Shown in pieces: positions 12,191-33,315 of a DNA stretch of 52,530 bases. The DNA is from a virus. Position numbers and translations under genes: made by a program. Every line of letters begins with the position of its first letter. Position 1 is the first letter of the stretch. The stretch lies in the IMG/VR virus record IMGVR_UViG_3300037245_003804, positions 1 to 52,530 of that record. One strand, given 5' to 3'. The notes under the pieces are model-generated. The model searched no databases. It worked only from the letters and a program-made list of their open reading frames with translations, and was not told where the DNA came from.

Positions 12191-12709
12191 TTATTCCCCT
12201 TTTGAATTATCATCTATCATATGCGAAATTGATATGCTAGCACCTTTAATATAAGCATCAGTTAAAGGAGAATCGCTTAAATTAGCGCGGGTTAAGTCAA
12301 CACCTATCAAGTCAGCATATTTAAAATCAACTCTCCAAAAAGTAGTGTTAATACAATCCGCACCTCTCAAATCAGTGCTTCTTAAATCGGAACCTGTAAA
12401 ATTAGCGTCTCTTAATGTAGCGTGGTATAATTTAGCACCTATCAAGGTAACATTCACAATATGGGCTGCACTTAAATTAGCACAACTAAGATCAGCACCC
12501 ACCATCCATGAATCAGTTAAATCCGCATCAATCAAGTTAGCATTAGTCAAGTTAGCATGTTGAAAGTTAGCATTTCTCAAATCAGCGCTTTTTAAATAAG
12601 CCCTACTCAAGTTAACACCTCTAAAATCAGCCCTTTCGCCTTCTTTACCTTCGCTATTTAGCCATTTTTTGTGCTTTTCTAAAATTATTTTTATATCTGA
12701 TTTAGTCAT
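12191..12709 (-). CDS. Pentapeptide-repeat protein
   Basis: The start at 12709 (M-T-K-S-D-I-K) has a GAGGATGGAT ribosome site. A 30-residue helical lead with L-E-K-H-K-K-W-L is followed by about 20 A-(D/N)-L-x-x repeats forming a right-handed quadrilateral beta helix, 172 residues in all. Such proteins can mimic DNA and protect or inhibit gyrase, but no target is evident here. Two relatives lie at 16292 and 16861 with the same lead. It is the first gene behind the promoter at 12751-12778 and is followed four bases later by the recombination operon. Confidence 0.92.
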   Translation of the reverse strand: MTKSDIKIILEKHKKWLNSEGKEGERADFRGVNLSRAYLKSADLRNANFQHANLTNANLIDADLTDSWMVGADLSCANLSAAHIVNVTLIGAKLYHATLRDANFTGSDLRSTDLRGADCINTTFWRVDFKYADLIGVDLTRANLSDSPLTDAYIKGASISISHMIDDNSKGE

Positions 12710-12750
12710 ATCCATCCTCATTTTAATCTGAATTATTTCAACTAATAGTG

Positions 12751-13380: not shown

Positions 13381-13450
13381 AGTTCACCCCCACGAAAGTA
13401 TTGAGAATCAATCCCGTTTATCAAAAATATTTTATTAATCCCCTTGCGGG

Positions 13451-13510
13451 GTGCTCTTTCAATATGTTGATCAGACCATTAAACAACATAAAGAAAGAGC
13501 AGACCTAGCA
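13451..13510 (-). ncRNA. Two-tier hairpin in the leader of the lipase-like gene
   Basis: TGCTCTTTC and GAAAGAGCA pair over nine bases, and inside them ATGTTG and CAACAT pair over six. Next to it on the minus strand is a compact CCCC-GCAA-GGGG hairpin. Together they occupy the roughly 180-base untranslated leader between the promoter at 13564-13592 and the ATG at 13380. The leader is a candidate regulatory RNA; no known riboswitch consensus was recognised. Confidence 0.55.
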
Positions 13511-13563
13511 ATAAACAACATCATTCACAAATTAATTGGAATAAATCATTGCTAAGCAAAACC

Positions 13564-13592
13564 AATATACACCACAAATACTCAAATGTCAA
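13564..13592 (-). promoter_or_regulatory. Sigma70-type promoter for lipase-like gene
   Basis: On the minus strand, TTGACA (13592-13587), 17 bases, then TATATT (13569-13564). The -35 element overlaps the stop codon of the upstream gene. Transcription would start near 13557, leaving a long leader before the lipase-like gene. Confidence 0.7.
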
Positions 13593-14014
13593 CCGAAAGT
13601 AAGCAATGGTTCTTCTTCTTTTTTTATTTCAATAGTTGGAGCGGCGGGAGATTCACTAATACATTCCCAAAAGATATGGTTTTCATCTAATTTATTCATA
13701 GCACTTTTAGAAAGGCTCGGTTTATACCTAACACAATCTAAAGCCAAATCATTATCATCAAAATTTTCTTTTAATTCAATCCATTTTGATTCATCAAGTT
13801 TGTAGGATGTGTTGTATTTTAATTTCAAATCTTTATATTGAGAATTAGATTTCCCGATCTGTTCTCCCATAATCTCTTGACATATTTCTTTTCTTAGTCG
13901 CATTTCTTCGGATTTTGCATCATCTAGCTTTTGTTTTTGAAAAGCCCAATCTCGGATTTTAATTTCTAAACTTTCTTTGTACTGAAAACCAGGCTTTATA
14001 GTATTTACTTTCAT
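13589..14014 (-). CDS. Hypothetical early protein, resembles DUF7173-type phage proteins
   Basis: The start at 14014 is set by a GAGG ribosome site. The longer frame would run into the structured RNA region. The protein has 141 residues: a helical, charged N-terminal half (D-A-K-S-E-E-M-R-L-R-K-E-I), then a basic K-L-K-Y-N-T-S-Y-K-L stretch and Y-K-P-S-L-S-K-S-A. That layout recalls a common phage family of unknown function encoded near recombination genes. I make that link from memory only. It ends on top of the lipase promoter. Confidence 0.65.
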   Translation of the reverse strand: MKVNTIKPGFQYKESLEIKIRDWAFQKQKLDDAKSEEMRLRKEICQEIMGEQIGKSNSQYKDLKLKYNTSYKLDESKWIELKENFDDNDLALDCVRYKPSLSKSAMNKLDENHIFWECISESPAAPTIEIKKEEEPLLTFG

Positions 14015-14109
14015 TTTACATCCTCGTAATAAGGCGCCCCTGCCAATGCCGGATGGGGACAAAGACATAGTAGGAAAGGAAGGAAACCTACGTTAGGGCG
14101 CGTAATAGT

Positions 14110-14684
14110 GCAGTTGATTCGTATAACCCGCGCTATACTGGCTCAACTGCTAGGCCGTAGTGTTGAATGCAGTTGATTTTGCGCACCAGGAGGCTTATAA
14201 GACCAAAGGCACACACGGCTCAACTGCTAAGCCGTATTATTAGCATGTTAGTGTTCTGACCAACGGAACTACCACCCCATTGGGCATGACCCCATCAAGG
14301 ACGGGCAGGAGTCGAACCCGCGACCTCTAACATGCTAACAATATTCAATGCAGTTGATTCGTAGGACAGACGACCGGGGCTGCCTACCGGCTCAACTGCT
14401 AAGCCGTAAAGTGACGGCACCCCAAGGTTACCGCCCTCTTTAATAGTGTGCAGCTGATTCATAGGATAGACGACGGAGGCTACCTATCGGCTCAACTGCT
14501 AAGCCGTAGGGCAACGGCATCCCAGCGCGCTGCCGCCCTTATTGAAACAGTGTGCAGTTGATTTAACATGCCATCATATGACCTTATAAAGCTTAGGCAT
14601 GCAAGGCTCAACTGCTAAGCCATATTTGTGCAGTTGATTTGCATGATCTCGGAGATCACGTACGGCTCAACTGCGGAAGCCGTA
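14110..14684 (-). repeat. Six imperfect repeats of a 50-71-base hairpin unit
   Basis: Units lie at 14110-14159, 14169-14236, 14350-14408, 14450-14508, 14554-14624 and 14630-14684. Each begins (plus strand) with GCAGTTGATT and ends GGCTCAACTGCTAAGCCGTA or a close variant; the middle differs in sequence but always folds. Gaps are 5 to 113 bases. Two gaps (14409-14449 and 14509-14553) hold a further related GC-rich hairpin and the largest holds the tRNA-like domain. Confidence 0.85.
14240..14338 (-). other. tRNA-like domain with permuted halves
   Basis: On the minus strand the 3' half comes first: a GTTAG strand, a five-base variable loop, then a canonical T arm (GCGGG-TTCGACT-CCTGC, 14321-14305) and an acceptor strand CCGTCCT. 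A short linker follows, then acceptor strand GGGGTGG, TA, a D arm with G18-G19 (GTTC-CGTTGGTCA-GAAC, 14269-14253), one A, and a CTAAC strand. The acceptor pairs over seven bases with three G-U pairs. The anticodon-type stem is extended by the perfect 12-base inverted repeat TTAGCATGTTAG/CTAACATGCTAA. If circularised and cut there, the loop ATGCTAA would give anticodon GCT (Ser). Position 14 is C and not A. No ordinary 5' or 3' half exists nearby. Confidence 0.65.
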
Positions 14685-14742
14685 TGGTTTAGCCGGGCGG
14701 GAAGTGCTCTTGCCACACTGAATTGCCGGCCTCCAATAGGGG

Positions 14743-15354
14743 TTAATCTAATAGCTTAATAGTCATATAATTGGTTAAGGTTCTTAAATTGGCCATAAAA
14801 GGTCTACAGCTTTGATTAAAATCCCAATCCATATAAGGTGAAAAGTCCGTAGTGTTCGCCGGAGTTTGGATTGTTTTAGCATCACAATCCAGTTTACTTC
14901 TCAATATGAACGCATTATTACCATTAATTATTCTTAGATTCAACTCAGTATGAGAGTAAAGGTGTAAATCTGAATATTCACCCACATTCTCCACATCAAA
15001 TCCAATCGTAACTAATTGTTCACCACCCCCCCTTAAACTGTCAAATTTTGAGTTATAAAGTAGCGTATTTTTTGCGCTAATATAAGCCGGAACATTTTGC
15101 GTGTCATAGGCCGCATAACCAAACTCAAAGCCTTCGACAACACCTAGTGGCACTGGGTGCACAATCACATAGCGATTCCTGCCGTTCTTGGGTGCCCAAG
15201 GTATCCCTACCATTATATAGTCGAGGCCACCCACGGTTATAATATCACCTACATTAGAAGGGATATGCTTATAAGTATAGGTTGTGCCAGAAAATACCAT
15301 TGCGCTGCATAAAACCAAACTTAACGCTATTAATGCTTTTATTGATTTCTTCAT
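14743..15354 (-). CDS. Secreted protein of unknown function
   Basis: The protein has 203 residues. A clear Sec signal peptide is present (M-K-K-S-I-K-A-L-I-A-L-S-L-V-L-C-S-A-M-V-F-S-G, likely cut near residue 22). The mature part is beta-rich, has two cysteines (155 and 184) that could form a disulphide, and shows no domain I recognise. A periplasmic or surface role such as superinfection exclusion is possible but only inferred from export. It has its own promoter (15427-15454) and is followed by the structured RNA region. Confidence 0.75.
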   Translation of the reverse strand: MKKSIKALIALSLVLCSAMVFSGTTYTYKHIPSNVGDIITVGGLDYIMVGIPWAPKNGRNRYVIVHPVPLGVVEGFEFGYAAYDTQNVPAYISAKNTLLYNSKFDSLRGGGEQLVTIGFDVENVGEYSDLHLYSHTELNLRIINGNNAFILRSKLDCDAKTIQTPANTTDFSPYMDWDFNQSCRPFMANLRTLTNYMTIKLLD

Positions 15355-16291: not shown

Positions 16292-16864
16292 TTATGGCTC
16301 ATAATCCTCAGGAAATTTAGTGCCTTCCAAATAGCAATGGCTCAAGTTAGAAAACCTAAAATTTACCATGCGGAAGTCAGCACGCCTTAAATCAGAACCG
16401 TACAAGTTAGCACCAGTCAAGTTAGAATACCTGAAATCTGCATTATTTAAATTAGAAAAGCTCAAGTTAGAATAACTTAAATCAACACGCATTAAATCAG
16501 CTCCCCATAACGTAGCTCCTGTAAAGTCAGTATTTTCTAAATCGGAAAACTGTAAATTAGCATTTTTTAACCAAGCACCTCTAAAATCAACACCTATCAT
16601 CTTGGCACGTTTTAAACAAGTATCTGTCAAATCAGCACGGCTTAAATTAGCAGCCATTAAGTTAGCATCAGTAAAAATAGTATGTCTTAATCTGCAAAAA
16701 TTTAAATCAATACCTATCAGTATAGATTCTCTTAAATCAACACCATCCAAATCCTCACCTGTTAGTACTTGATGACTTAAATCAGCTTGCTCACCTTTTT
16801 TGCATTTACTTTCCAACCATTCTTTATGCTTTTCCAAAATAATATATAAATCTGATTTTTTCAT
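16292..16864 (-). CDS. Pentapeptide-repeat protein
   Basis: The protein has 190 residues. The lead M-K-K-S-D-L-Y-I-I-L-E-K-H-K-E-W-L matches those at 12191 and 16861. Then come about 27 A-(D/N)-L-x-x-type repeats ending in F-P-E-D-Y-E-P. It overlaps the upstream WDYF/pentapeptide fusion by four bases; that protein also ends F-P-K-D-Y-K-P. The two genes are thus recent duplicates, one with and one without the WDYF head. Confidence 0.9.
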   Translation of the reverse strand: MKKSDLYIILEKHKEWLESKCKKGEQADLSHQVLTGEDLDGVDLRESILIGIDLNFCRLRHTIFTDANLMAANLSRADLTDTCLKRAKMIGVDFRGAWLKNANLQFSDLENTDFTGATLWGADLMRVDLSYSNLSFSNLNNADFRYSNLTGANLYGSDLRRADFRMVNFRFSNLSHCYLEGTKFPEDYEP

Positions 16865-17685
16865 GGTTTATAATCCTTAGGAAAGATAATAGTATGATCT
16901 AAATAGCATTTTTCCATGTTGATATTTTTAAGATTTGCTGTACTAAAGTCGGCATTTTTTAATGTAACTCCCCTTAATTTAGCGTTACTTAAATTAGTAT
17001 ACAGAAAACTGACATAGCTCAAGTCCGCATCAGTCAAGTCAACACCAGTCAAGTCAGCGCCATTCAAGCTAGAGCCTATCAATTTAGCGCCATATAACTC
17101 AGCATTTACCAAGCGAGCATCCCATAAAGAAGCCCCTAAAAAATCAACTTCTTGTAAGTTAGCATTCATTAAGTTAGCTTCTTTTAAATCAGAACAATTT
17201 AAGCTAGCGCGAGTCAAGTCAGCTTTACTTAAATTAGTATTTCTCAATTTAGAATAATTTAAATTAGCGCCACTTAAATTAGCTTCACTCAAGTCAGCTT
17301 CACTTAAATCATAACCGACTAAGTCAGCGTTACTTAAATCAGCTCTTTCGCCACTTTCTCCTTTGGTATGCAACCATTCCCTATGTTTTTCTAATATGAT
17401 TTGTAATTCTGTTTTATTTATTGTTGTATGTTCATATCCTTTTAATAATGTACATGTAACAAAATAATCCCAATCTGTGGTAGGTTTATATAATTTTTTA
17501 AAAAACGGCTCGCATCTCATAATAAACGAAAGTTCTTTATTTCTTTTATCAGTTTGAAATGTATCTTCACAATTTGAATCATCTAAATGTTTATAGTTGC
17601 CCTTTAATTCAAAAAAATAAAAACTATCAATTGATTCGCGTTCATTATAGGTATGTCTTACCATAAAGCATGTGTATGTAATCAT
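16861..17685 (-). CDS. Fusion: WDYF-family domain + pentapeptide-repeat domain
   Basis: The protein has 274 residues. Residues 1-80 are a WDYF unit (Y-T-C-F-M-V, F-F-E-L-K-G-N-Y-K-H-L-D, then K-P-T-T-D-W-D-Y-F-V). Residues 92-112 are the L-E-K-H-R-E-W-L lead, and about 115-270 are more than 30 pentapeptide repeats. The fusion ties the unknown WDYF module to a protein class known for DNA mimicry, so the two may act on the same target. It has a purine-rich ribosome site and is followed by the 16292 duplicate. Confidence 0.88.
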   Translation of the reverse strand: MITYTCFMVRHTYNERESIDSFYFFELKGNYKHLDDSNCEDTFQTDKRNKELSFIMRCEPFFKKLYKPTTDWDYFVTCTLLKGYEHTTINKTELQIILEKHREWLHTKGESGERADLSNADLVGYDLSEADLSEANLSGANLNYSKLRNTNLSKADLTRASLNCSDLKEANLMNANLQEVDFLGASLWDARLVNAELYGAKLIGSSLNGADLTGVDLTDADLSYVSFLYTNLSNAKLRGVTLKNADFSTANLKNINMEKCYLDHTIIFPKDYKP

Positions 17686-20792: not shown

Positions 20793-21095
20793 TTATCCTT
20801 CAAAGACATAAAATGCATCATCACAGTTCGCACGCTCATCTTCATTATTTTCCATATATATTATCTTTTCCATTTGATGTTTTCGAACGGAAACATATCT
20901 TTCAAGGCTTGATATAAAAATCGAATAATCAAGCGTCTCTGAAAATTTATTTTCTTTTACCAATGATTTCATGGCTGCTTCAAAAGATGATCGTGGGGTG
21001 TTTAATAAATGGTTCACCATCTCTGTTCTGATTATTTTTTCTACTTTAATTGCTTCAATTTTACTATTTTTGTTTTCTGAAGTTTTCATTAACAT
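20793..21095 (-). CDS. Small helical protein of unknown function
   Basis: The protein has 98-100 residues, depending on which of two ATGs two codons apart is used; an AAGGAGA site serves either. It is charged and helix-rich with many K, E and M residues, and ends D-D-A-F-Y-V-F-E-G. It lies between the paired proteins at 21089-21996 and the WDYF series, in one operon. Confidence 0.6.
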   Translation of the reverse strand: MLMKTSENKNSKIEAIKVEKIIRTEMVNHLLNTPRSSFEAAMKSLVKENKFSETLDYSIFISSLERYVSVRKHQMEKIIYMENNEDERANCDDAFYVFEG

Positions 21096-21532
21096 AAATC
21101 TCCTTTCATAGATGTAATGTACTTTTTTGCTTTATCTATATAAATACCGATATAAGGATAATAGCGTGGCCCATTTTCTATTTGTACAATTTCAACAAGC
21201 ATCTTAAAAAGATTAAAAAATTGCCCTTCAGTTTGCCGTTCCCTGATGTATAAACAATCTTTAGTTTTTGTATTCTTGCAAGTAAGAAAAGTAGCTGTTG
21301 CAAATTCAATATAAATATCGTCTATTTTATTCATATGTTTTTTTTTCATTTTGTGTGTCATGTCGACACCCTCAACTCTTGCATATTGTTCTTTTAACTT
21401 TTTATGTGCTATGCAGGAATGTAGCTGAAAATAAGCAATAGCGTTTTCTAAATCTGATTTTTCTATTTCGCAGTGAAAAAATGGCCTAAATACATTAAAC
21501 GTATGTATTTTAGCTATTGCAGCGCCATCCAT
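21089..21532 (-). CDS. Hypothetical protein, paralogue pair member A
   Basis: The 147-residue protein is clearly duplicated with 21532-21996. Shared order: (C/Y)-E-I-E-K-x-D-L-x-N-A-I-x-Y-F, then I-D-(D/N)-I-Y-I-E-F-A-x-A, then K-T-K-D-C, and (I/V)-x-I-E-N near the end. The family is unknown. It starts on the base where the previous gene stops. Confidence 0.7.
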   Translation of the reverse strand: MDGAAIAKIHTFNVFRPFFHCEIEKSDLENAIAYFQLHSCIAHKKLKEQYARVEGVDMTHKMKKKHMNKIDDIYIEFATATFLTCKNTKTKDCLYIRERQTEGQFFNLFKMLVEIVQIENGPRYYPYIGIYIDKAKKYITSMKGDLC

Positions 21533-21996
21533 TATGAAGCTCCTACCATATATGAAATATGTTTTTTTGCTTTTTTTATATAAATACCTATATGTTTTGG
21601 TGGATTTTCTATTTTAACCATTCCAACAAGCATATTAAAAAGATTTAAAAATTGTGCATCAGTTTGGTATAGCCCATTAAATGAACAATCCTTAGTTTGC
21701 GCATTCTTATAAGTAAATAAGCTGGCTACTGCAAATTCAATATAAATATTGTCTATTTTTTCATTATGTTTTTTTTGTATTTTTCTCGTCATTCCGTTAT
21801 ATTCCTTTTCTTTTATATGATTAGCCCATAACTTTTGATGCGCCACACGGCAATGTATCTCAAAATAATCAATGGCATTTAATAAATCTAATTTTTCTAT
21901 TTCATAATCAAAATATGGTCGCCACCCCGGTAGGGCGTCAATACGAGAATTTATGGTTTGTAGGCTATAAACATAATCCTCTATTTTACCTTCCAT
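21532..21996 (-). CDS. Hypothetical protein, paralogue pair member B, first gene of operon
   Basis: The start at 21996 (M-E-G-K-I-E-D) has AAGGATG eleven bases before it; the ATG four codons earlier is too close to that site. The protein has 154 residues and shares its motif order with 21089-21532. It is the first gene behind the promoter at 22042-22069, which should feed the whole series down to about 15.5 kb. Confidence 0.7.
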   Translation of the reverse strand: MEGKIEDYVYSLQTINSRIDALPGWRPYFDYEIEKLDLLNAIDYFEIHCRVAHQKLWANHIKEKEYNGMTRKIQKKHNEKIDNIYIEFAVASLFTYKNAQTKDCSFNGLYQTDAQFLNLFNMLVGMVKIENPPKHIGIYIKKAKKHISYMVGAS

Positions 21997-22041
21997 AAAA
22001 TGAAACATCCTTATTAAGATTATTTAATCCAACTAAAACCA

Positions 22042-24523: not shown

Positions 24524-24600
24524 CGGGGTATAGCGCAGCCTGGTAGCGCATCCGCTTTGGGAGTGGAGGGCCGGGAGTTCAAATCTCCCTACCCCGACCA
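24524..24600 (+). tRNA. tRNA-Pro (anticodon TGG), CCA encoded
   Basis: It folds as a complete cloverleaf: acceptor CGGGGTA/TACCCCG, D arm GCGC/GCGC, anticodon loop TTTGGGA, T arm GGGAG-TTCAAAT-CTCCC, discriminator A and encoded CCA. TGG reads all or most proline codons. It follows the replication gene on the same strand; no terminator is seen before the convergent gene at 24631. Confidence 0.97.
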
Positions 24601-24630: not shown

Positions 24631-25059
24631 TCAATTCTTTTTGAGGGGATTATGGTTTTTAGCATAGCTCTTCTCCCTTATGCCACTTTCATTCATTAAA
24701 CTATAAATCTGTTCCTCATACATTCGTTTGCTTATTAAACATTCATATATGGACTCTTTAGAACGATATAGATCGCCTTCAATTAGGACATAGGAATCGC
24801 ATATTTTTTTGTGGGGGTTGGTAATTGTAAATAAACCATATCGTCTTTCTATTTCTTTGGCAATGTTATGGAGCTCAAAAAAACGCTCTAGTTTATCAGT
24901 GTTAACTATGCACGCATCACGTACATTGCGCAATCTATTCAAATAATCAATAGATATTCTACTTATTTCTGCTATGTTTTTATAATTCAAGTTGATCGCG
25001 TATTTTATTAACGTGCATGCGTCATCCATACACATTATAAAGACTTTAGTATCAATCAT
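24631..25059 (-). CDS. Hypothetical protein, partial duplicate of the next gene upstream
   Basis: The start at 25059 overlaps the upstream stop. The protein has 142 residues and resembles the C-terminal two thirds of 25052-25612: N-Y-K-N-I-A-E-I-S-R-I-S is identical in both, followed by (I/L)-x-R-(F/R)-x-(E/Q)-L and S-K-E-S-I-Y-E-C-L-I-S. The W-E-x-C module is missing. N-I-A-E-I-S-R-I-S-x-x-x-L looks like a helix-turn-helix and may bind DNA. It is the last gene of the series and converges on tRNA-Pro. Confidence 0.7.
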   Translation of the reverse strand: MIDTKVFIMCMDDACTLIKYAINLNYKNIAEISRISIDYLNRLRNVRDACIVNTDKLERFFELHNIAKEIERRYGLFTITNPHKKICDSYVLIEGDLYRSKESIYECLISKRMYEEQIYSLMNESGIREKSYAKNHNPLKKN

Positions 25060-25612
25060 TATCCGAACCATCCCCATCCACACACCTAGAGGTGTCAATA
25101 TCAGTATTTATATCTATTATGTTATAAATCTTTTCATCGTCCATTGGATCGCTTATTAAACACTCATATATGGATTCCTTGAATGAGTGATATCGCACCC
25201 TCATGTGGGGGTTAATAGGTGTATAATCTTTATAACGTCTTAGTATTTCTTGTGCTATATCATAAAGCTGGATAAAACGAGTTAGCTGATCGGCGTACAA
25301 TGTGTAGTCGTCGCGCGTCGTATATTTCTTACGCCAGCTAGATAGGCAGCTAACAGATATTCTACTTATTTCAGCTATGTTTTTATAATTCAAACTAAGT
25401 TCTTGTTTTATTAGGTCGCATGCACTGTCTATTTCATGACATTTCATATTTATTTTATCCCATATGCAGTATTTTTCATCCACAATATAACAAAGTGTAT
25501 TTACTGAAATCTTTATGTTTTTTTCTTTTGCTAATGTTTTGCATTCTTCCCATAGCGTTACGCTCTTCCGATGGTCAACATGGTCTGTTATTCCTTTCAT
25601 AATGTCATTCAT
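25052..25612 (-). CDS. WEEC-family module + helix-turn-helix-like domain
   Basis: The start at 25612 is supported by a GGAG site. The protein has 186 residues. It begins with a WEEC unit (V-T-L-W-E-E-C-K-T-L-A-K-E-K-N-I-K-I-S-V-N), then the N-Y-K-N-I-A-E-I-S-R-I-S segment and the S-K-E-S-I-Y-E-C-L-I-S end shared with 24631. The second half could be a DNA-binding domain, which would make this the regulator of the series, parallel to the XRE-WDYF fusion. Confidence 0.7.
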   Translation of the reverse strand: MNDIMKGITDHVDHRKSVTLWEECKTLAKEKNIKISVNTLCYIVDEKYCIWDKINMKCHEIDSACDLIKQELSLNYKNIAEISRISVSCLSSWRKKYTTRDDYTLYADQLTRFIQLYDIAQEILRRYKDYTPINPHMRVRYHSFKESIYECLISDPMDDEKIYNIIDINTDIDTSRCVDGDGSDND

Positions 25613-26024
25613 TGTCAATCTCCTCACTTCCAAAGCCCATAAGCTCGTTTACCTTTTTTGAGCTTCCTGTTAGTAACTCCCCTAACTCCTGGGGTGTTAA
25701 TCGTTTGCTCACTCTTTTATCATACTTGGCTGTACATAGACAATCTTTCAAGTTATGAAAATTCTTTACATCCCTTTCAAGAATATCTACAAAGATAGAT
25801 GGTAAATCTTGGTTTTCTTCGTCAATTTTAGTCATTTCACGCCTTTCCTCGTTTGTTTTAGATATCACATAACTTAAATGTTTGTACTTTAATATAACGT
25901 CTCCTTCAATCCCATAACCATCATTATTTTTATTTGATGATAGTTTATACCCTTTTTTTTTCGCAAATTCTATACACGTTTCCCATAGTGTGGGGCGTCT
26001 GTTTTCTTCTATGATTTCAGTCAT
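25605..26024 (-). CDS. WEEC-family protein with extra C-terminal region
   Basis: The protein has 139 residues. It begins with the family unit (L-W-E-T-C-I-E-F-A-K-K-K-G-Y-K-L-S-S-N) and a Y-K-H-L equivalent of the end motif. The last 60 residues, beginning near L-P-S-I-F-V-D, are not shared with other members. The stop region overlaps the next gene by eight bases. Confidence 0.7.
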   Translation of the reverse strand: MTEIIEENRRPTLWETCIEFAKKKGYKLSSNKNNDGYGIEGDVILKYKHLSYVISKTNEERREMTKIDEENQDLPSIFVDILERDVKNFHNLKDCLCTAKYDKRVSKRLTPQELGELLTGSSKKVNELMGFGSEEIDNE

Positions 26025-32289: not shown

Positions 32290-32766
32290 TTAGATATCCA
32301 GCCTCCACAATATATGGGCTTTATAATGTTTTGTGGGCCTATTTATTTTTTCTATGAATTTGCTATCAGTGGAACCACAATTGATTAATCTGGTGATTGT
32401 ATTGAACTGACTTTCTGGCCGAATTGTTATTGTGTGAGTCAAATAAATACACTCGTTATCTTCTTTAATGACTGTGCCTTTTATTACCCATCCTGCGACA
32501 ACGATTACAATTTCATTGATTTTGCCATTGTCAAGCTTGGGGTACATTTCATTGAAAATCTCATCTTGTTGTGTTTTTTGACGGTCAATAAGTTCCTTTT
32601 CATCATTACCGCCAACCTTTACCCATACTCCATTATCATGATCCCATTTATGTTTTTTTTCTTGTTTATGTTTTTTGACGGTCAATTTCCTTATTGTTTC
32701 TCTTATCTCTCTGGTCATATTGTCCATTATTGCTTGAAACTGGTCAATTTCATCTTGTATGCTCAT
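32290..32766 (-). CDS. Hypothetical protein, paralogue pair member
   Basis: The start at 32766 (M-S-I-Q-D-E-I-D) has GGAG six bases upstream; the longer frame begins with TTG. The 158-residue protein is related to 32787-33269: the same (I/D)-D-x-F-Q-x-(M/I) N-terminus, a charged K/E-rich middle, Y-P-K-L-D-N, G-W-V-(I/F)-K-G-(T/I)-V-I-K-E-D, and an H-Y-x-A-H-I end. Helical stalk plus a small beta domain. Function is unknown. Confidence 0.68.
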   Translation of the reverse strand: MSIQDEIDQFQAIMDNMTREIRETIRKLTVKKHKQEKKHKWDHDNGVWVKVGGNDEKELIDRQKTQQDEIFNEMYPKLDNGKINEIVIVVAGWVIKGTVIKEDNECIYLTHTITIRPESQFNTITRLINCGSTDSKFIEKINRPTKHYKAHILWRLDI

Positions 32767-32786
32767 AAAATTCTCCAATAGTGGTT

Positions 32787-33269
32787 CTAGGTATTAAATC
32801 TAAACACTATGTGCGCTACATAATGAACGGTGGCGTTTTTTATTCTTCCTATACTATAACTACACTTCTCGTCTAATGTTAATTGGTGTATTACATTTGT
32901 GTCACTATCTATTTGCATAGACGTTGTATTGTTTAAATAAATGCATTTCTCGTCCTCTTTAATAACTATACCTTTGAATACCCATCCAGGCGTACCAATT
33001 ATAATTTGATTATTGTCGAGTTTAGGATATAATTTGTTGAAAAGTTCATCTTGTGTTATTTGATCGTCAATGAGGTCACTTTCACGTTTATTTTTTTCTT
33101 CTTGTTCCTTTTCTATTCTTTCTCTTAGATCTTTTGATTCTTTAGAGATGGAGGCATTATAAATGGCGCGCTCTTCATCGCTCATATGGTCAATATAAAT
33201 ATCAAACTCTTTCTGTGTCATAATGCTGATCATTTCTTGAAAACGGTCAATATCATCTTCCATGCTCAT
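32787..33269 (-). CDS. Hypothetical protein, paralogue pair member
   Basis: The start at 33269 (M-S-M-E-D-D-I-D) is chosen by the same GGAG rule as its partner. The protein has 160 residues. The N-terminal half is a charged helix (K-E-S-K-D-L-R-E-R-I-E-K-E-Q-E-E); the second half is the conserved beta part. It is first behind the 33316-33344 promoter. Confidence 0.68.
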   Translation of the reverse strand: MSMEDDIDRFQEMISIMTQKEFDIYIDHMSDEERAIYNASISKESKDLRERIEKEQEEKNKRESDLIDDQITQDELFNKLYPKLDNNQIIIGTPGWVFKGIVIKEDEKCIYLNNTTSMQIDSDTNVIHQLTLDEKCSYSIGRIKNATVHYVAHIVFRFNT

Positions 33270-33315
33270 AAACTGCTCCAATATTAGTTAAAATTAATAA
33301 ACAACACTACATCGA

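What the first reader, a model, noticed from the sequence alone, without database searches (positions are those of the whole stretch)
14240..14338. tRNA-like domain with 3' half before 5' half, embedded in the RNA array
Seen directly: on the minus strand a canonical T arm and acceptor strand come first, then a linker, the other acceptor strand and a D arm with GG. The ends carry a perfect 12-base inverted repeat that extends the anticodon-type stem. This is the order of a circularly permuted tRNA or of the tRNA-like domain of a permuted tmRNA. Permuted tRNA genes are established in some algae and archaea; one grafted into a repetitive phage RNA would be unusual. It may be a tRNA mimic (anchor, decoy or processing signal) and not a decoding tRNA, since the whole anticodon loop would sit in a helix.
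Basis: partly seen in the sequence, partly recalled or inferred. Interest (0 to 1): 0.88.

Follow-up and report, generated by a model that had tools for sequence, protein, structure and literature searches.

The report
Phage RNA scaffold carrying tRNA mimic
A phage carries a roughly 640-base structured RNA, built from six near-identical knotted folds, with a tRNA imitation plugged in back to front through its anticodon stem, the same trick that bacterial Y RNAs use; such back-to-front tRNA imitations prove to be common in phages, but this large scaffold around one was found nowhere else.

Summary
On the minus strand (14343-14235) the order is variable loop, T arm, acceptor 3' strand, 19-nt linker, acceptor 5' strand and D arm, all hung on a 17-bp helix in place of the anticodon arm. 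A descriptor of this fold finds it once in the window and never in 325 Mb of matched random sequence. Rejoined, ARAGORN calls it a tRNA, and its closest E. coli relative is tRNA-Asp.

It is not a permuted tRNA gene and not a tmRNA. Its order and closed acceptor are those of the tRNA-mimic module of bacterial Y RNA (YrlA, RF02553; 36.5 bits, below the gathering score of 69). It lacks the Ro60-binding stem, and no Rsr/Ro60 gene was found in the record. It is therefore Y-RNA-like, not a proven YrlA.

One partial IMG/VR scan gave about 25 further permuted modules not called as tRNAs; about half of those records lack a detectable Rsr. What is unusual is the setting: the module is one limb of an array of six H-type pseudoknots on the same strand, with compensatory changes between two copies. 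No homologue of the array was found. Proposed function (inferred): a stable RNA scaffold presenting a tRNA decoy or anchor to a host tRNA-binding enzyme.

The parts
14235..14343 (-). Whole permuted tRNA-like module including its 17-bp basal (anticodon-position) helix
   Evidence: Descriptor search, 1 hit in window and 0 in 325 Mb random; RF02553 36.5 bits; model R2 50.9 bits
14327..14343 (-). 5' strand of basal helix TATTGTTAGCATGTTAG
   Evidence: Pairs 17/17, one G-U, with 14235-14251
14305..14321 (-). T arm GCGGG-TTCGACT-CCTGC
   Evidence: Canonical TTCRANY loop, 5/5 stem pairs
14298..14304 (-). Acceptor 3' strand CCGTCCT
   Evidence: 7/7 pairs with 14272-14278, 3 of them G-U
14279..14297 (-). 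19-nt linker that closes the acceptor stem, with a small TGGG/CCCA hairpin
   Evidence: Sequence; fold
14272..14278 (-). Acceptor 5' strand GGGGTGG
14253..14269 (-). D arm GTTC-CGTTGGTCA-GAAC with conserved GG
   Evidence: C instead of A at position 14
14235..14251 (-). 3' strand of basal helix CTAACATGCTAATAATA
14630..14683 (-). Pseudoknot unit U6 (first from the 5' end of the RNA): S1 7 bp, L1 3 nt, S2 7 bp, hairpin in L3
14554..14623 (-). Pseudoknot unit U5
14450..14507 (-). Pseudoknot unit U4; tandem copy of U3 with compensatory changes
14350..14407 (-). Pseudoknot unit U3, directly 5' of the tRNA-like module
14169..14235 (-). Pseudoknot unit U2, directly 3' of the tRNA-like module
14110..14158 (-). 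Pseudoknot unit U1 (weakest S1)
14508..14553 (-). Linker with hairpin between U5 and U4
14408..14449 (-). Linker with hairpin between U4 and U3
14691..14731 (-). GC-rich hairpin at the 5' end of the array
14015..14109 (-). Tail: GCGCCC/GGGCGC-closed structure, then ribosome-binding site GAGG of the next gene
13589..14014 (-). Downstream gene, DUF7173 protein (PF23791); likely start at the ATG at 14014, not at 14068
   Evidence: sequence

Best explanation
The feature is a circularly permuted tRNA mimic of the bacterial Y-RNA kind. It is attached through its anticodon-position helix to a roughly 640-nt non-coding RNA made of six H-type pseudoknot units. Shown here: the sequence has all elements of the tRNA elbow (T arm, D arm with GG, closed acceptor) in Y-RNA order; the array has six units of the same pseudoknot; the minus strand is the strand that carries the structure. 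Inferred: the RNA is made during infection (from its own promoter or out of the early transcript); the pseudoknots form a compact, nuclease-resistant scaffold; the mimic stands out on its 17-bp rod and docks on a host protein that reads the tRNA elbow (candidates from Y RNA work: PNPase, TruB and Dus-type modification enzymes; also RNase P). It thereby anchors that enzyme or takes it out of use. It cannot decode, because there is no anticodon loop.
For: Fold and order. The Y-RNA module has the same topology: authentic YrlA next to Rsr and rtc-type genes show the order T arm, closed acceptor, D arm, and PDB 6CU1 is a circular permutation of tRNA (PMC11472068). Phages carry such modules widely, and in them the acceptor stem covaries (5 of 7 pairs with changes on both sides; 49 doubly changed cells against 16.5 +/- 2.9 in shuffles). 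No flanking tRNA halves are present, so this is not two adjacent tRNA genes. Scaffold: six units score 48-60 bits and nothing else in the window reaches E < 0.6. U3 and U4 fold identically, with G-C to A-U and C-G to U-A compensations. The minus strand folds better than the plus strand (z -4.6 against -2.4). G+C is 50% against about 33% around it. That YrlA is read by TruB, DusA and PNPase is from PMC8394870.
Against: No expression data. No homologue of the array, so array conservation is untested. A plain energy model slightly prefers other folds of the module. C at position 14 removes the 8-14 tertiary pair. No protein partner is identified: the Ro60 part is absent, so any partner is guessed.
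Confidence: 0.6

Rival explanations
1. The array with its tRNA-like limb is the long 5' leader of the DUF7173 gene (or an intercistronic element of the minus-strand operon) and controls it in cis, for example by stability, by RNase processing or by antitermination.
For: Same strand as both neighbouring genes; the ribosome-binding site of the DUF7173 gene follows closely after the last structured stretch. No terminator-like site lies between array and gene.
Against: Six repeated pseudoknots plus a tRNA mimic is far more structure than known leaders need. Permuted tRNA-like modules in other phages mostly lie in intergenic or tRNA-cluster stretches.
Confidence: 0.2
2. The tRNA-like limb is a processing signal: RNase P (and a 3' tRNA processing enzyme) cuts in the 19-nt linker and splits the RNA into two pieces held together by the 17-bp helix, as in permuted two-piece tmRNA.
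For: Order and linker are those of permuted pre-tRNA and pre-tmRNA, where RNase P and tRNase Z are thought to remove the intervening sequence (PMC3978253, PMC3985003). The first acceptor pair is a weak G-U.
Against: No encoded CCA. Y RNA modules with the same closed acceptor are known as single RNAs. Not testable by sequence.
Confidence: 0.15
3. A permuted tRNA gene that matures to a decoding tRNA by loss of the basal helix and ligation.
For: Rejoined with any of four 7-nt loops it is called as a tRNA and resembles tRNA-Asp.
Against: No anticodon loop and no bulge-helix-bulge; the anticodon stem runs on as 17 uninterrupted pairs. The permuted tRNA genes reviewed in PMC3978253 are algal and archaeal.
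Confidence: 0.03
4. A relic of two adjacent tRNA genes whose outer halves were lost.
For: Adjacent tRNAs give sub-threshold YrlA matches (28 bits in phage contig L001, up to 42 bits for two near-identical tRNA genes).
Against: Adjacent halves do not by themselves explain 7/7 acceptor pairing together with a 17-bp helix joining the outer ends; no tRNA remnants flank it. It may still be the evolutionary origin.
Confidence: 0.04

Closest known systems
YrlA, bacterial Y RNA (Rfam RF02553; PDB 6CU1)
   Same: Order T arm, closed acceptor, D arm; attached by the anticodon-position stem; tRNA elbow kept, anticodon lost
   Different: 36.5 bits against a gathering score of 69; no Ro60-binding basal stem; no Rsr gene in the record; embedded in a pseudoknot array instead of a stand-alone RNA of about 90-150 nt
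Rsr-less permuted tRNA-like modules in other phage contigs (L139, L143, L144, L155, L164, L179, L209, L224, L246; found here)
   Same: Same module, phage-borne, no Rsr detected in the record
   Different: Other basal stems, some in tRNA clusters; none examined has a repeated pseudoknot core
GOLLD and ROOL, large phage and prophage RNAs (PMC12286853)
   Same: Large, ornate, pseudoknotted phage RNAs; GOLLD sometimes carries tRNAs in its linker
   Different: No Rfam match to either; the tRNA there is phage-encoded tRNA, not a permuted mimic as far as described; no repeat of one pseudoknot unit
Two-piece (permuted) tmRNA
   Same: Permuted tRNA-like domain together with pseudoknots
   Different: Full D stem, no G3-U70, no supported tag frame, RF00023 only 12.1 bits
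Circularly permuted tRNA genes of algae and archaea
   Same: 3' half before 5' half with an intervening sequence at the acceptor end
   Different: No anticodon loop, no splicing motif, not a tRNA gene

Membership tests
YrlA / bacterial Y RNA | Circularly permuted tRNA-like module with T and D arms and an acceptor closed by a loop | tested here: met
   same layout in authentic YrlA
YrlA / bacterial Y RNA | Score at or above the RF02553 gathering threshold (69 bits) | tested here: not met
   36.5 bits; two near-identical adjacent tRNA genes reach 41-42 bits, so this score is not specific
YrlA / bacterial Y RNA | Basal Ro60-binding stem (GGCGAAUGC ... GUCGCC type) | tested here: not met
   Motif absent from 14000-14760; present in authentic YrlA L130 and L131
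YrlA / bacterial Y RNA | Rsr/Ro60 gene nearby | tested here: not met
   PF05731 none; tblastn and a profile from authentic Rsr find none in the record. The record may be incomplete, and the host genome is unknown
YrlA / bacterial Y RNA | Modified by TruB/Dus and bound by Rsr and PNPase | not testable with these tools
   needs biochemistry
Circularly permuted tRNA gene | Anticodon loop restored after joining, splice motif at the junction | tested here: not met
   17 uninterrupted pairs in place of stem and loop
Permuted tmRNA | RF00023 match, tag reading frame, reduced D arm, G3-U70 | tested here: not met
   12.1 bits for the T arm alone; full D stem; position 3-70 is G-C; ARAGORN finds no tmRNA at its default setting
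GOLLD / ROOL | Match to the Rfam model | tested here: not met
   No match up to E = 10 over 14015-14742
Intact decoding tRNA | Found by ARAGORN or RF00005 in the genomic order | tested here: not met
   Only tRNA-Pro at 24524-24600 is found

The most novel reading that the evidence does not exclude
The locus encodes a new class of large phage RNA: a tandem pseudoknot scaffold that displays a Ro60-independent permuted tRNA mimic. It would represent a wider, undescribed group of phage tRNA mimics that work without Rsr and capture or block host tRNA enzymes.
Probability: 0.35. Interest if true: 0.75.

Novelty: new variant of a known kind. Interest (0 to 1): 0.55.

Why it matters
Y RNAs are thought of as partners of Ro60/Rsr. 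Here a phage has the tRNA-mimic half without the Ro60 half, set in a large repeated RNA scaffold, and about half of the phage records with such modules also lack a detectable Rsr. If true, the tRNA mimic is the mobile, reusable part, and phages use it for something other than feeding RNA to Rsr, plausibly to hold or block a host tRNA-processing or RNA-decay enzyme. It also gives a defined phage RNA for a direct binding test.

Tried and rejected
1) Array core patterns in viral contigs, genome contigs, phages, plasmids and E. coli, and model R1 in 274 genomes: only chance single hits or tRNA genes, no second array. L001 looked like a hit but is a tRNA cluster; L006 and L007 are contigs of the same lengths as the two Lactobacillus phages whose endolysin gene matched.
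2) Reading the RF02553 score as proof of YrlA: rejected, because adjacent tRNA genes score 28 to 42 bits.
3) PF05731 as the only test for Rsr: it missed Rsr proteins next to YrlA in two genomes, so I repeated the test with a profile from real Rsr proteins.
4) Related phages by protein: only distant ones (terminase 40%, capsid protein 45%, Sak4-like ATPase 38%), no syntenic array.
5) Integron attC sites: the repeat polarity is the reverse of attC (GTT first, AAC last) and the spacers are non-coding; judged by eye only.
6) Plus-strand RNA: rejected. U4 keeps the S2 pair as U-G on minus but has C-A on plus; the acceptor has three G-U pairs on minus only; minus folds better.

Full report
Observation. 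The minus strand of 14235-14343 holds, in order, a variable loop, a canonical T arm, the acceptor 3' strand, a 19-nt linker, the acceptor 5' strand and a D arm with GG, enclosed by a 17-bp helix with one G-U pair. When the halves are rejoined with a loop, ARAGORN calls a tRNA with every loop tried. The best E. coli match is tRNA-Asp, and most of the closest annotated phage matches are tRNA-Asp too. Given the real stem, one of 5000 dinucleotide shuffles of the halves passes. A strict descriptor of the whole permuted fold hits once in the window and never in 325 Mb of random sequence with the window's dinucleotide frequencies. The elbow contacts that can be read from sequence are present (T54-A58, G18-G19 with T55-C56, G15-C48, C13-G22-G46), except 8-14, because position 14 is C (read from the sequence, standard tRNA numbering).

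What it resembles. Rfam's only sensible match is YrlA, the bacterial Y RNA, at 36.5 bits and E about 5e-6, below the curated 69. Y RNAs contain a tRNA-like domain that is a circular permutation of tRNA (PMC11472068, on PDB 6CU1) and is a substrate of TruB and DusA, with a basal stem that holds Rsr/Ro60 and a tRNA-like domain that holds PNPase (PMC8394870). As a control I searched 369 gammaproteobacterial genomes. Convincing YrlA appears at 49-92 bits in three of them (G247, G075, G172). In G172 I read an RtcR-like regulator, an Rsr protein, then RtcB- and RtcA-like proteins around it, and in G075 an Rsr protein next to it (gene names by eye from the translations). In G247 four YrlA copies lie next to Rsr. 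These have the same module layout as the window. But two near-identical adjacent tRNA genes also score 41-42 bits, so the score alone proves nothing. What separates the window case from adjacent tRNAs is that no tRNA halves flank it and that its two outer ends pair over 17 bp.

Is it a YrlA? The defining basal stem (GGCGAAUGC with GUCGCC) is absent, and no Rsr is found in the record by Pfam, by tblastn with two authentic Rsr, or by a profile. It therefore has the module of a Y RNA without the Ro60 half. Membership in YrlA fails on tested features; working like the YrlA module remains possible.

How common are such modules in phages? After removing ARAGORN tRNAs and demanding pairing, 25 places besides the window remain. 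A few of these (L227, L228, L245) lie among tRNA genes and may be tRNA remnants. In a 17-member alignment the acceptor stem shows changes on both sides at 5 of 7 pairs, with 49 doubly changed cells in the whole structure against 16.5 +/- 2.9 in shuffles, and sliding the partners destroys it. Members were selected for at least 5 of 7 acceptor pairs, so the percentage paired is partly circular; the variety of pair types is not. A model from these 17, without the window, finds the window module at 50.9 bits, in the range of authentic YrlA (41-63 bits), although adjacent tRNA genes also reach 68 bits with it. Of 25 such records tested, 13 have an Rsr by the profile and 12 do not; Pfam TROVE finds none either in the 11 of those 12 that were checked with it. 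Records may be fragments. Permuted tRNA mimics without Rsr thus seem to be a real and under-noticed group in phages.

The array. Six units U6-U1 share ACGGCUUA-GCAGUUG-AGCC, a variable hairpin, then AAUCAACUGC, with small departures. Read on the minus strand each is a classical H-type pseudoknot: S1 of 4-8 bp (only 3 in U1), a 2-3 nt loop crossing a 7-bp S2, and a third loop that carries a hairpin. On the plus strand the short loop would have to span the other groove of a 7-8 bp stem, which is sterically poor (established pseudoknot geometry, my knowledge). U3 and U4 are tandem copies of about 100 nt whose L3 hairpins have the same fold with two double compensations. U4 has a U-G in S2 that is a pair only on the minus strand. 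The minus strand folds with z -4.6 against -2.4 for plus, although the fold program cannot see pseudoknots. The tRNA-like module sits between U3 and U2, where the U5-U4 and U4-U3 junctions carry simple hairpins.

No second array exists in the collections searched. Conservation of the array and of this module in close relatives is therefore untested.

Mechanism. Shown: anatomy, strand, significance, kinship of the module to Y-RNA-type tRNA mimics. Inferred: transcription, compact folding of the array, presentation of the elbow on a rod, and docking of a tRNA-reading host enzyme. I rate the structural identification at about 0.85 and the anchor or decoy function at about 0.35; the figure for the combined statement is 0.6, meaning mainly the first. 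The strongest rival is a cis-acting leader of the DUF7173 gene, whose likely start is 14014 and not 14068. RNase P cutting in the linker is a separate possibility that could hold together with either.

Setting. The record is a 52.5-kb contractile-tail phage or prophage contig by its tail sheath, terminase, portal and head proteins. Its host is unknown; the nearest terminase among phage isolates is 40% identical.

Noticed in passing
window 13430-13592 (-): A strong promoter-like site (TTGACA, 17 nt, TATATT; 13592-13564), then about 120 nt with two strong hairpins and a CCCCGCAAGGGG hairpin followed by an A/T-rich stretch: candidate small RNA or leader of the lipase gene. It shares the 8-mer GCTTAGCA with the array core.
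   Followed up: partly
L139:7845-8177, L164:5600-5820, L143 and L165: Permuted tRNA-like modules in phage contigs without detected Rsr (L165's short record included) that share a 3' motif CTTAAACGCC: they look like a separate family of tRNA-mimic RNAs.
   Followed up: partly
L131:7962-8810 (-): Four YrlA copies in a row next to an Rsr gene in a gammaproteobacterial genome.
   Followed up: no
L129:7259-8806 (+) and L130:9737-11290 (-): Rsr proteins beside YrlA that Pfam TROVE (PF05731) does not recognise in a genome search: counts of Ro60 based on that model alone will be too low.
   Followed up: yes
L186:2176-2300 (-): A permuted tRNA-like module in a 345-kb phage record with an extra hairpin inside and a 14-bp uninterrupted basal helix, the closest in that respect to the window; this record does encode an Rsr.
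   Followed up: no
L001:1700-5440: A phage contig with more than 20 tRNA genes and a tmRNA (tag GDTSLAIAA).
   Followed up: no
window 12191-12721 and 16292-17685 (-): Three pentapeptide-repeat proteins flank the array region (sequences; Pfam match for the two at 16292-17685).
   Followed up: no
window 21089-22008, 24631-25633, 32290-33281: Pairs of adjacent similar genes, suggesting repeated local duplication as in the U3/U4 units (by eye).
   Followed up: no
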